Shown here: piece by piece, positions 22,453 through 29,279 of the stretch
Numbering within the stretch: position 1 is the first letter of the stretch
How the letters are laid out: each line of letters begins with the position of its first letter
DNA from: Bhargavaea beijingensis
GTDB taxonomy: Bacteria; Bacillota; Bacilli; Bacillales_A; Planococcaceae
DNA length: 64,000 nucleotides
Reading direction: 5' to 3'
NCBI RefSeq assembly: GCF_900101985.1
Contig: NZ_FNAR01000007.1
Location: 1 to 64,000, forward strand
The notes under the pieces: generated by a model
Seen by the model: the letters and a program-made list of their open reading frames with translations, nothing else
Told to the model about the DNA's origin: nothing
Databases searched by the model: none
Program-made: the position numbers and the translations under genes

Positions 22453-23181
22453 TCATCCGGTAACGAATGTTCCGGGACTTTGTTCGGAAAAGCTGCGGAT
22501 ATGGAGCGGTACGGATGCCATCGCGGCATACAGTGCCGCTTTTTTTTGGATAATGGGCCGCTTTGTCTCGAGCAGCGGAAGCAGCTCCGCGTGGGTAAGA
22601 GATCTGAACAATTGCGCATCCGGCTTTACGGAAGGATCCGTTTCCATTACGCCGGGTACGTCCTTGAAAAATTCAACGATTTCAGCACCCAGCATATCGC
22701 CCAGGACCACTGCGGTCAGGTCACTGCCGCCACGACCTGTCGTCCGGATCCGCCCGTCGCGTCCTGTCCCTTGGAAACCGGGTACGACGGCGACATTGCA
22801 GTCACCCCAGATACGGAAAAAGGGCTCCAGCTCCATTTCCAGGTCGGCACTGCCAAATGGTCCTTCGGTCAGGATACCCGAACGGCTGCCATAGATCAGC
22901 TCGTTTTCTATACCTGCTTGTTCAAGCTCGGCGGACATGATCGCCGAAGCTAAAAGCTCTCCGCAACCGGCAGCGACATCTTGGGCATGAGGCGAGATCC
23001 CGATTGCTTCACTGATGGACAGCAGGCTGTCCGTTGAATAGGGATCTCCTGCCCTTCCCATGGCGGATACGACGATGACAACCTTCCCGTGTTCCCTGAC
23101 CGCCCTTCTGATATGGCGGATACATGCTTTTCTGGAGCGGCTATCCCTCATGGCGACCCCTCCAAATTTCTGGATGATCAT
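22453..23181 (-). CDS. Stand-alone aspartokinase catalytic domain
   Basis: A 242-residue amino acid kinase. It has the aspartokinase marks KFGG at residues 5-8, VVSAMGRAGDPYSTDSLL, the GRGGSDLTA aspartate-binding block and VPGVMETDP. It ends at a natural stop right after the catalytic domain, so the two C-terminal ACT domains that give lysine/DAP/threonine feedback in normal aspartokinases (about 400 residues) are absent. It would phosphorylate aspartate, the first step to diaminopimelate, lysine and dipicolinate, probably without feedback control. It is divergent from a MurE gene and convergent with the CAP-domain gene (nine-base gap). A weak GATGGTGG ribosome site is present. Confidence 0.82.
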   Translation of the reverse strand: MIIQKFGGVAMRDSRSRKACIRHIRRAVREHGKVVIVVSAMGRAGDPYSTDSLLSISEAIGISPHAQDVAAGCGELLASAIMSAELEQAGIENELIYGSRSGILTEGPFGSADLEMELEPFFRIWGDCNVAVVPGFQGTGRDGRIRTTGRGGSDLTAVVLGDMLGAEIVEFFKDVPGVMETDPSVKPDAQLFRSLTHAELLPLLETKRPIIQKKAALYAAMASVPLHIRSFSEQSPGTFVTG

Positions 23182-23206
23182 CGAACTACGCCACCATCTT
23201 TCTTCG

Positions 23207-23258
23207 TGTCATTCAACCACCGTCCTACATACGATGGAGGGTACTCCAACATAATGTA
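23207..23258 (+). promoter_or_regulatory. Candidate sporulation-type promoters of the murE-like gene
   Basis: CATACGAT at 23228-23235 is one base from the sigma-E -10 CATACAnT; a weak -35 (TGTCATT) lies 14 bases upstream. CATAATGTA at 23250-23258 fits the sigma-K -10 CATAnnnTA exactly, with AC 17 bases upstream at 23231-23232. These motifs carry little information, so chance matches are possible. No good sigma-A promoter was found in this 114-base gap. Confidence 0.3.
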
Positions 23259-23295
23259 TTCGCTCAGAACAAAAATGTTCGGGAAGGGGTCAGGC

Positions 23296-24813
23296 ATGAT
23301 CGAATTATGCGAGCTGCTGAAAAACTGGCCGTGCACGGCAAAGGGCGGGGACTTCCGGGCACTTGTCAGCGGCGTGACGGATCATTCGGCCGAAGTCATT
23401 CCCGGTTCGGTATTCGTAGCCCGAAAAGGTCGTTCGGCGAGCGGGCTGGATCATATCCAGGAAGCCCTTCACAACGGGGCGGTAGCGATTGTCACAGATA
23501 TCTCCCGTCCTCCTGGGATTCCGCAGGGCGTGACGTCGATTTCCGTACCGGATGCAGCCGATTTTCTGGCGTATGCCTGCTCGGCTTTCTATGGCCATCC
23601 ATCCAGGGAACTGACGGTATTTGCGGTTACCGGGACAAATGGGAAAACCACCACCACCCGGTTTATCGGCCAGTTGCTGAAGGCAGGCGGGATACGGTCG
23701 GCCGTTATCGGGACACTCGGCGTTTGGATAGATGGAAGAAAAGCTCCGCTTCAGACCCCGCCTATGACGACCCTGCCGCCCGCGCATCTGCACCGGGTGC
23801 TCAGGTACTGTGCGGACGAAGGGGTCACGCATATCGCCATGGAGGCATCTTCACTCGGATTATCGGGCAAGCGTCTTGACCATTGCAGCATCGACTACGG
23901 AATCTTCCTTAATATTGGAACGGATCACCACGCCGAACACGGAGGGGAAGAAGCGTATCTTAGCGCCAAGGGCAGATTGTCAGAACTTGCCGGAAAAATC
24001 ATTTTGAATGCAGATGATGCTTCAGTTTTGAGCATTACCCGAGGCACTCGTCCTGTAATGACTTTCGGGGAGCGGCCCGGTGGCGACACACACCTGAGAA
24101 TCTCGGATGACGGAAAAGGAGACTGGATGCTTGCGGCCGGCAAGGCGCACACGGTCATCGCCGCACCGGTGGAGGGCAGGCATAATCGCCTGAATGCGGC
24201 CGCCGCCTTTGCATCGCTCATGGCTGCCGGATTCGGTCTGGCTGATTTTCGAAGAAATGCATCCTGTCTCTCCCTGCCCGAGGGCAGGATGCAGGAGTCG
24301 GAAGGGGCGGGCATCCGGGTGTTTGTTGACTATGCGCATACACCGGACGCTCTTGAAGCGGTGCTCGGCGCACTTTCCTCGTTGTGTACGGGCCGGCTTA
24401 TTACGGTCTTCGGGTGCGGCGGGGATCGGGATAGGGAAAAGCGTCCAAAGATGGGGAGCGTTGCCGGGGAGTATTCGGATTCGGTCTGGGTGACTTCCGA
24501 TAACCCAAGAAGCGAGGAGCCGACTCAGATCATCTCGGACATCATGGAAGGGCTGGCGGGTACATCAGCCATCGTACGTACAGAGACGGACAGGGAGCGT
24601 GCCATCCGCGGCGCCATTTATGAAGCGGAAGCAGGGGATTTCGTGCTCATCGCGGGTAAGGGACATGAGGAAATCCAGATTTCCAAATCTTCTTCAAGGC
24701 CTTTTTCCGACTACCGGACGGCGCTCCGGTTTCTTGGAGAACGGGCGGCGGATGGAGACACCAGAGTGCAATCGGCCGACAGATTCTGGTATGATGGGAG
24801 TGGAATGGAGTGA
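23296..24813 (+). CDS. murE: UDP-MurNAc-tripeptide synthetase (MurE family)
   Basis: A 505-residue Mur ligase adding the third stem-peptide residue. The P-loop TGTNGKTTT has Lys117. EASSLGLSGKR, the FVDYAHTPDALE block, and GKGHEEIQ are in order. The specificity motif is DNPR at 402-405 (then SEEP), the signature of meso-diaminopimelate-adding enzymes; lysine-adding MurE of staphylococci has DNPA. The N-terminal uracil-site block reads VTDHSAEV, while typical enzymes have DSR there. The ATG at 23296 is chosen for GGAAGGGGTC; a long upstream extension overlaps the divergent kinase gene and is unlikely. murE is normally in the dcw cluster, but none is there in this window. The stop overlaps the ylbF region. 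Confidence 0.88.
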   Translation: MIELCELLKNWPCTAKGGDFRALVSGVTDHSAEVIPGSVFVARKGRSASGLDHIQEALHNGAVAIVTDISRPPGIPQGVTSISVPDAADFLAYACSAFYGHPSRELTVFAVTGTNGKTTTTRFIGQLLKAGGIRSAVIGTLGVWIDGRKAPLQTPPMTTLPPAHLHRVLRYCADEGVTHIAMEASSLGLSGKRLDHCSIDYGIFLNIGTDHHAEHGGEEAYLSAKGRLSELAGKIILNADDASVLSITRGTRPVMTFGERPGGDTHLRISDDGKGDWMLAAGKAHTVIAAPVEGRHNRLNAAAAFASLMAAGFGLADFRRNASCLSLPEGRMQESEGAGIRVFVDYAHTPDALEAVLGALSSLCTGRLITVFGCGGDRDREKRPKMGSVAGEYSDSVWVTSDNPRSEEPTQIISDIMEGLAGTSAIVRTETDRERAIRGAIYEAEAGDFVLIAGKGHEEIQISKSSSRPFSDYRTALRFLGERAADGDTRVQSADRFWYDGSGME

Positions 24814-28385: not shown

Positions 28386-29279
28386 TCAGGTCCAGAAAGA
28401 TAGGAGCAGCATGAACACTGGTGGCACGATGATCATGTGTGCCAGGCGTGCTGCCGCATACCAGCGCATCGGGATGCCGGCCCCGCGGGCGATGACTGAG
28501 ACTTGAAGGTGGATGCTGAGGCCGTTCATGGATAGGATGAGTGCAGTCAGCGCCGCATGAAGATCCATCCCGGAAAACAGGTCGTATGCCGTCTGAAGTC
28601 CTGCAGTCATTTCAAACAGCGGAAAGACCGCCATTCCTGCCGTCTGTGCATCCATTGGGCTGAGCCTGGACAGCAGATCCGCCGCCACGGTTCCGACGGC
28701 GGAAAAAAAGACGACAGTTGTCGCCACAAGGACAATGGTCTGGGAACTGTCCTTCAGGCTTTCGGTGAGTGGGGAGCCGGCTTTCCTTTTTGGGGTGACT
28801 GAAGAAACCGGCGGACATGTCGGCTGAATGGCCGAGCGGATGGAGAGAATCAGGAGAAAAACAAGGTTAAGCCCATGGATGACGGCCATGAGCAGCCACC
28901 CGACCGAAGCGCTCCCGAACAGTTCATTGCCGACATAGCCGATCAGCAACATGGAACTCGGGGCATGGCAGATTGCAATCAGCAAAGCGCCTTCCCGCTT
29001 CGTCAGCCGCCCGTCCCTGACTTGATGGGATACGGAAACCGCCCCGACGGGGAAGCCGCCGAACGCTCCCAGCAGGTAAGTTTTCCAGTAGGTGCCTGTC
29101 CGTCTTTTCGGCTCTTTTCCGGGCAGGCGGAGCAGCCATTGAGTCAGGATCAGATAAGGAAGCAGATAGGGAAGCAGCGCTTCCGTAAACAGTTCAATGC
29201 CGAATACTGCCCCCTCCCGGGCAAGTCCCGGCTGGAGGAGAAACAGTACGATGAGGCACCAGATGATGACGGTATACAC
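28386..29279 (-). CDS. ylbJ: Sporulation membrane protein YlbJ (short form)
   Basis: A 297-residue multi-pass membrane protein with seven to nine helices. It resembles YlbJ, a nucleoside-recognition/gate-type protein of the sigma-E regulon. Visible landmarks are GAFGGFPVGAVSVSHQV, AICHAPSSMLLIGYVGN and a C-terminal GLSIHLQVSVIA. B. subtilis YlbJ is about 400 residues, so this copy lacks roughly 100; part of the conserved C-terminal half may be compressed. The start is GTG at 29279 with GAGGGAG about 12 bases upstream. A sigma-E-like promoter precedes it. Confidence 0.78.
   Translation of the reverse strand: MYTVIIWCLIVLFLLQPGLAREGAVFGIELFTEALLPYLLPYLILTQWLLRLPGKEPKRRTGTYWKTYLLGAFGGFPVGAVSVSHQVRDGRLTKREGALLIAICHAPSSMLLIGYVGNELFGSASVGWLLMAVIHGLNLVFLLILSIRSAIQPTCPPVSSVTPKRKAGSPLTESLKDSSQTIVLVATTVVFFSAVGTVAADLLSRLSPMDAQTAGMAVFPLFEMTAGLQTAYDLFSGMDLHAALTALILSMNGLSIHLQVSVIARGAGIPMRWYAAARLAHMIIVPPVFMLLLSFWT

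What the first reader, a model, noticed from the sequence alone, without database searches (positions are those of the whole stretch)
22453..24813. Divergent aspartokinase-MurE pair: possible dedicated diaminopimelate module for the spore cortex
A MurE ligase lies in the ylb region, far from the dcw cluster, which has no murE in this window. It carries DNPR at residues 402-405, the motif of meso-DAP-adding enzymes. Divergent from it is an aspartokinase domain, the entry enzyme to DAP. Sporulation-type promoter candidates (sigma-E-like CATACGAT, sigma-K-like CATAATGTA) precede murE and no good sigma-A promoter is seen. In Bacillus sphaericus and relatives vegetative walls contain lysine while spore cortex contains DAP, which needs a separate DAP-adding activity in the mother cell. 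This pair could be that system. If the genome has a second, DNPA-type murE, the idea gains strength.
Basis: partly seen in the sequence, partly recalled or inferred. Interest (0 to 1): 0.62.

Follow-up and report, generated by a model that had tools for sequence, protein, structure and literature searches.

The report
Spore-only diaminopimelate ligase gene pair
This bacterium carries two versions of a cell-wall ligase, and the one in this window looks like a dedicated copy that puts diaminopimelate into the wall of the dormant spore, next to a stripped-down enzyme that starts diaminopimelate synthesis; this would give a gene to a spore enzyme activity described decades ago.

Summary
In detail: murE (23296-24813 +) with DNPR at 402-405, divergent from an aspartokinase-like ORF (22453-23181 -); the dcw cluster in the window has no murE. 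The genome has a second MurE (contig C37), but with DDPR, not the predicted DNPA. Of 261 family genomes, 193 carry the window-type MurE2; all 193 have SpoIVA and 192 have dpaB (the miss is 76% complete). The 64 SpoIVA-negative genomes lack MurE2 but keep the C37 type. In the one mixed genus only the dpaB-positive species keeps a diverged pair. The short aspartokinase, without ACT domains, is found in 111 of the 193. dapG is absent from the dpaAB-asd-dapA operon, so the short kinase probably replaces it. Enzyme activity, expression and cortex chemistry are untested. Best reading: a mother-cell DAP-adding MurE for the cortex, with a feedback-free aspartokinase.

The parts
23296..24813 (+). murE2: second, DNPR-type MurE ligase (505 aa), proposed sporulation-specific DAP-adding enzyme
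   Evidence: orthologues
22453..23181 (-). short aspartokinase (242 aa, AA_kinase domain only, no ACT), proposed feedback-free supplier of aspartyl phosphate for DAP and dipicolinate
23206..23235 (+). sigma-E-like promoter of murE2: GTGTCATTC-N13-CATACGAT (-10 at 23228-23235)
   Evidence: spacing rule from PMC517825
23284..23289 (+). ribosome-binding-site-like AAGGGG of murE2

Best explanation
The gene at 23296-24813 is a sporulation-dedicated paralogue of MurE that adds meso-diaminopimelate to UDP-MurNAc-L-Ala-D-Glu in the mother cell, so that the spore cortex is built with DAP while the growing wall is built by the other MurE (DDPR type, C37), presumably with L-lysine. It is switched on from a sigma-E-like promoter. 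The divergent short aspartokinase is a DapG-like catalytic domain without ACT regulatory domains; it would feed the aspartate pathway without lysine or threonine inhibition, supplying DAP for the cortex and dihydrodipicolinate for DPA, in place of the dapG missing from the dpaAB-asd-dapA operon. Shown here: two MurE clades, motifs, co-occurrence with sporulation genes, conserved pair and promoter block, purifying selection, missing ACT and dapG. Inferred: substrate specificity, mother-cell expression, lack of feedback, use in the cortex.
For: Second MurE in the genome with DDPR. 193 of 261 family genomes have MurE2 (best E <= 1.1e-80; the other 68 >= 1.2e-75). All 193 have SpoIVA and none of the 64 SpoIVA-negative genomes has MurE2, while all 64 have the C37-type MurE. 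dpaB is in 192 of the 193 plus G014, and G014 is the only one of four genomes of genus g3 with dpaB and with a (diverged, DNPR) murE2-kinase pair. On a vegetative-MurE tree of 41 rows the genus-level label changes 5 times, at least 3 times on strongly supported branches. MurE2 is one clade (SH-aLRT 93), the DDPR MurE another (100). Motif DN[P/A/S/C]R in 96 of 96 distinct MurE2 proteins read, 90 of them DNPR; none of 19 extra MurE-like hits read in MurE2-negative and other genomes has DNPR. Promoter block in 55 of 65 divergent intergenics against 0.01 in shuffles, 0 of 30 before the vegetative murE; present in the named Sporosarcina highlanderae L243. spoIVA of this genome has CATACAATG upstream. 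29 of 30 asd loci have dapA directly after asd, none an aspartokinase. dN/dS 0.08-0.15 for murE2 and 0.07-0.17 for the kinase within the genus. DNPR binds the free carboxylate of DAP (PMC3829189, passages).
Against: No enzyme assay, transcript or cortex analysis. DNPR alone does not fix specificity: the A409R change in S. aureus MurE gave no DAP activity (PMC3829189), and the vegetative MurE here also keeps the R. The promoter block also resembles a sigma-K -10 (CATANNNTA), and the loci are related, so shuffles overstate its significance; 10 of 65 intergenics do not fit the pattern, and 16 of 29 murE2 loci without a detected kinase lack it. The 30 vegetative controls come from two genera only. 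The short kinase has KFGG[VI]A in most instead of KFGGTS and misses the TIGR00657 cut-off. dpaA and ylbJ of this genome score far below their family cut-offs, so sporulation of this strain is not certain. dS exceeds 1 in 4 of the 7 murE2 comparisons, so those ratios are rough. The lysine chemistry of the vegetative wall is inferred from the family, not measured.
Confidence: 0.83

Rival explanations
1. MurE2 is expressed in the forespore and makes DAP precursors for the germ-cell wall rather than the mother-cell cortex.
For: The co-occurrence with sporulation genes does not tell compartments apart.
Against: The conserved promoter block has a CATA -10 and a spacing that fits the mother-cell sigma-E rule (PMC517825), and spoIVA of this genome has CATACAATG upstream. 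In B. sphaericus the cortex, not the germ wall, is recalled as the DAP layer (not seen in any call).
Confidence: 0.07
2. MurE2 serves ordinary growth (mixed wall or precursor recycling), and its tie to spore formers is by chance of gene loss.
For: No expression data; genera that lost spores also lost other genes.
Against: The joint presence holds over 193 genomes with 3-5 changes on the tree; all 64 SpoIVA-negative genomes live without it and with the C37-type MurE; Mpl profile only 42 bits against a cut-off of 389; sporulation-type promoter.
Confidence: 0.06
3. The short aspartokinase is not a pathway enzyme but a degenerating remnant or a regulator of its neighbour.
For: No ACT domain, KFGG[VI]A instead of KFGGTS in most, below the aspartokinase cut-off.
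Against: Lengths of 237-256 aa in 85 loci (median 243) and purifying selection; the CGE and GRGGSD motifs are kept in the window protein; tight pairing with murE2; no aspartokinase in the asd-dapA slot.
Confidence: 0.2

Closest known systems
meso-DAP-adding MurE of E. coli / M. tuberculosis (PDB 1e8c, 2wtz)
   Same: Mur ligase domains, GTNGKT P-loop, DNPR, GKGHE; over the cut-off of one DAP-ligase model, NF001126
   Different: Second copy in its genome, outside dcw, in part of the family paired with an aspartokinase, confined here to genomes with sporulation genes
DAP-adding ligase induced in sporulating Bacillus sphaericus (Tipper, Pratt, Linnett; recalled, not found in the library)
   Same: Would be the same activity in the same family: lysine wall in growth, DAP in cortex
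   Different: Known (recalled) as an activity; no gene assignment was seen in the listings
DapG, aspartokinase I of B. subtilis (dpaA-dpaB-asd-dapG-dapA operon; order and name recalled)
   Same: Closest NCBIfam model PRK08210, recalled as the DapG type
   Different: No ACT domains, KFGG[VI]A in most, placed beside murE2; the slot between asd and dapA holds no aspartokinase
L-lysine-adding MurE of S. aureus (PDB 4c12)
   Same: Mur ligase family
   Different: DNPA motif there (PMC3829189); the vegetative MurE here is DDPR and MurE2 is DNPR

Membership tests
DAP-adding MurE (EC 6.3.2.13) | score over the curated cut-offs for MurE and for a DAP-ligase model | tested here: met
   TIGR01085 398.2 (cut-off 257.3); NF001126 393.7 (373). 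Not reached: e.g. NF001124 394.9 (476), NF001123 319.5 (586)
DAP-adding MurE (EC 6.3.2.13) | DNPR carboxylate-binding motif and catalytic Lys/P-loop | tested here: met
   D402-R405, GTNGKT 113-118, K225 invariant in A2
DAP-adding MurE (EC 6.3.2.13) | adds meso-DAP in vitro | not testable with these tools
   needs an assay
Aspartokinase, full-length (TIGR00657) | score over cut-off; catalytic domain plus ACT domains | tested here: not met
   TIGR00657 153.7 (cut-off 208.7); only PF00696 found; the chain ends at 242, about residue 243 of the 421-aa 3aaw
Aspartokinase catalytic domain (PF00696) | AA_kinase domain with CGE and GRGGSD | tested here: met
   104 bits (cut-off 24.9); both motifs in the sequence; alignment to 3aaw; KFGGVA replaces KFGGTS
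Sigma-E regulon promoter | -35 and -10 elements with spacing 12 +/- 1 and conservation | tested here: met
   sigma-K cannot be excluded from sequence
Sigma-E regulon promoter | transcription in the mother cell | not testable with these tools
   needs transcript mapping
Sporulation-specific gene | present only in genomes with sporulation genes | tested here: met
   193/193 with SpoIVA, 0/64 without; dpaB in 192/193

The most novel reading that the evidence does not exclude
DAP in the cortex is so constrained that the spore-forming genera of this family, whether their other MurE is the DDPR type or the divergent type of genera g3 and g13 (perhaps ornithine-adding), keep a separate mother-cell MurE for DAP, and part of the family couples it to a feedback-free aspartokinase driven from a shared divergent promoter region; loss of sporulation removes the module.
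Probability: 0.55. Interest if true: 0.7.

Novelty: new variant of a known kind. Interest (0 to 1): 0.62.

Why it matters
It gives a concrete gene to an enzyme activity of sporulation known (from recall) since about 1970 and makes an old question testable: why the cortex needs DAP even where the growing wall does not. A one-gene deletion in a Sporosarcina laboratory strain would show whether cortex can be built with lysine. MurE2 is also a clean genomic marker for sporulation genes in this family, and an aspartokinase without its regulatory domain is of interest for dipicolinate and lysine metabolism.

Tried and rejected
Rejected: the prediction that the second MurE is DNPA (DDPR in 41 of 41 vegetative-type proteins read). 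Rejected: CATAATGTA as a sigma-K promoter of murE2 (4 of 65 intergenics); the conserved letters there (AATRTATTC, 52 of 65) fit better a -35 of the divergent aspartokinase, though in the window itself that gene's -10 is weak by eye and only 24 of 65 show CGAATA-N12-16-CATA on that strand. Rejected: Mpl/recycling ligase (42 bits against 389). Checked and rejected: that the extra MurE-like hits of genomes without MurE2 hide a DNPR enzyme (19 read, none DNPR).

No structure was predicted, since the fold is not in doubt.

Literature: the old B. sphaericus papers are recalled, not seen. No gene assignment for a sporulation DAP ligase was seen (20 of 26 papers listed; 8 of 8; 15 of 99; 1 of 1; 25 of 108; 15 of 29; 5 of 5); these are listings, most papers were not opened, and subscription journals are largely missing. 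One search was swamped by the word cortex and says nothing. Papers opened by passages only: PMC3829189, PMC517825, PMC6971209, PMC3533761, PMC4015370, PMC9781867.

Limits of counts: 'MurE2 present' rests on an E-value gap, with motifs read in 96 proteins (distinct over a 160-residue stretch); genus tallies were counted by hand from the printed rows. Intergenic counts pool related genomes; some genomes entered through two loci (86 loci, 65 distinct intergenics). Of the 29 murE2 loci without a detected kinase, two pairs are the same genome and one (L211) is a Sporosarcina locus whose kinase is cut short. In one search, 53 loci were left out because no ATG lay near the expected start. In one search both trait labels were set identical by genus, so its pair test shows nothing beyond the number of changes; genera g3, g13 and g14 are not in that tree. 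The trees are quick trees without bootstrap, and L141 is a very long branch.

Full report
What is there. The window holds a 505-aa MurE ligase at 23296-24813 (+) and, divergent from it across 114 bp, a 242-aa aspartokinase-like ORF at 22453-23181 (-). The MurE passes the MurE subfamily cut-off and one DAP-ligase equivalog cut-off, not the others, and has DNPR at 402-405. The kinase is an AA_kinase domain alone; its best NCBIfam model is PRK08210 (aspartate kinase; I recall it as the DapG type), below cut-off; aligned to a 421-aa solved aspartokinase it ends at residue 243. The neighbours are a CAP-domain gene (ylbC-like) and a ylbF-like gene. The dcw cluster in the same window runs spoVD, mraY, murD without murE, and is followed by spoIIGA, sigE and sigG.

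A second MurE exists. The genome (2.99 Mb, 43 contigs, 99.8% complete) has one further full MurE, 35% identical, on contig C37. Its motif is DDPR. DDPR was found in 41 of 41 vegetative-type proteins read, including those of genera without sporulation genes.

It follows sporulation genes. In 261 genomes of the family, 193 (12 genera) hold a strong MurE2 (E <= 1.1e-80); the remaining 68 have nothing better than 1.2e-75. In the 11 SpoIVA-negative genomes whose best hit was read, it is the DDPR protein; 19 further MurE-like hits, mostly from such genomes, carry other letters (DHPG, DDLN and others), none DNPR. SpoIVA is in 197 genomes: the same 193 plus four of genus g3, three of these with weak scores; two of the 193 (G222, G244) also score weakly. 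DpaB is in 193 genomes: 192 of the MurE2 genomes (the miss, G249, is 76% complete) plus G014 of g3; one of the 193 hits is under the curated cut-off. G014 holds a divergent, fast-evolving murE2-like gene with DNPR beside a short kinase, next to a gene that looks by eye like the same ylbC-like neighbour; its three sister species have neither dpaB nor a strong MurE2. The C37-type MurE is in 237 of 261 genomes, including all 64 without SpoIVA; it is missing (at E <= 1e-100) in g3, g13 and one other genome. On a tree of that protein the genus-level label changes five times, at least three times on strongly supported branches. All this rests on genes, not on observed spores.

The kinase is a variable partner. 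Orthologues of the short kinase (E <= 1e-39) are in 111 of the 193 genomes (g1, g11, g13, g14, g17, g19); in the other 82 (g5, g7, g8, g10, g16, g18) the best kinase hit is no better than 1.9e-23. In 85 loci it is 237-256 aa long, median 243, and nearly always has K[FY]GG[VI]A where aspartokinases have KFGGTS. In 29 of 30 asd loci dapA follows asd directly and no aspartokinase lies within 1.5 kb; in B. subtilis dapG sits there (recalled). I infer that the short kinase took over that supply role in one part of the family. Both genes are under purifying selection in the genus (7 comparisons).

Promoter. Aligning 65 distinct intergenics of the divergent pair gives two conserved islands, GTGWCRTTY-N13-CATACGATA toward murE2 and AATRTATTCG. 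A pattern for the first fits 55 of 65 (shuffled mean 0.01) and 0 of 30 sequences before the vegetative murE of two genera; 13 of 29 murE2 loci without a detected kinase carry a similar block (12 of them with CATATGAT), 16 do not. The B. subtilis sigma-E logo has an 8-nt -35, spacing 12 +/- 1 and a 10-nt -10; sigma-K has spacing 15 +/- 1 (PMC517825, passages). The spoIVA gene of this genome has CATACAATG upstream. So a mother-cell sigma, more likely sigma-E, is the best reading. The shuffles ignore common descent; the stronger point is that the islands stay while the spacer has changed.

Phylogeny. MurE2 forms one clade (SH-aLRT 93) and the DDPR enzymes another (100); genera g3 and g13 have a third type in which DNPR is replaced by a segment like SRSHVT. 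I suspect these are ornithine adders, because ornithine walls are recalled for some genera of this family; no call names these genera, and some g13 genomes carry a further DDLN-type copy. That the genus g13, which has SpoIVA and dpaB, keeps MurE2 although it lacks the DDPR enzyme is a useful internal control. Whether MurE2 is the ancestral dcw enzyme is not settled by the tree.

Mechanism. Shown: motifs, two paralogues, co-occurrence, pair, promoter island, selection, missing ACT, no kinase in the dapG slot. Inferred: in the mother cell sigma-E starts murE2 (and perhaps the kinase); the unregulated kinase keeps the aspartate pathway open for DAP and dipicolinate while lysine is plentiful; MurE2 makes DAP-tripeptide, which MurF and the cortex machinery (SpoVD) use. 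S. aureus work warns that MurE selectivity is not set by this motif alone and is helped by substrate pools (PMC3829189, start of abstract and passages), which would make an extra DAP supply meaningful.

Against. dpaA and ylbJ of this genome are divergent and below cut-off, and if the host is Bhargavaea it is described, as I recall, as non-sporing. Three of the g3 genomes keep traces of spoIVA without MurE2. Ten of 65 intergenics and 16 of 29 kinase-less loci miss the promoter pattern. No chemistry or expression was measured.

Known or new. The chemistry (lysine in growth, DAP in cortex, a DAP ligase appearing in sporulation) is recalled from work on B. sphaericus; no paper naming the gene turned up in the listings, which cover only open-licence papers and were partly capped. 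I rate it a new variant of a known kind: a MurE by the sequence criteria tested, but a spore-dedicated paralogue with its own promoter and, in part of the family, its own kinase.

Noticed in passing
L135-L140, L142, L143 (genera g13 and g3): A third, very divergent MurE type without DNPR or DDPR (SRSHVT-like segment aligned there instead), perhaps ornithine-adding; one clade (SH-aLRT 100).
   Followed up: partly
L343-L361: Further MurE-like paralogues in non-sporulating and some other genera with DHPG or DDLN at the DNPR position; function unknown.
   Followed up: partly
L133:2840-6234 (contig C18 of the host genome): dpaA-dpaB-asd-dapA operon lacks dapG; dpaA is short and far below its family cut-off.
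   Followed up: partly
window 28386-29279 (-): ylbJ-like gene scoring 90 bits against a cut-off of 305: a divergent cortex gene in this lineage.
   Followed up: no
window 22523-22539 (+): Terminator-like hairpin followed by a T run inside the 3' part of the aspartokinase gene, on the strand of the upstream CAP-domain gene.
   Followed up: no
L176 (G003): Two dpaB hits about 1 kb apart in one relative; could be a real duplication or an assembly artefact.
   Followed up: no
window 23272-23289: The stretch AAAATGTTCGGGAAGGGG before the murE2 start looks, by eye, conserved in Sporosarcina and this genus beyond what a ribosome-binding site needs.
   Followed up: no
families f6 and f16 of the class (e.g. 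G346, G366, G339, G311): Other Bacilli genomes with two MurE hits; not checked for spore linkage.
   Followed up: no
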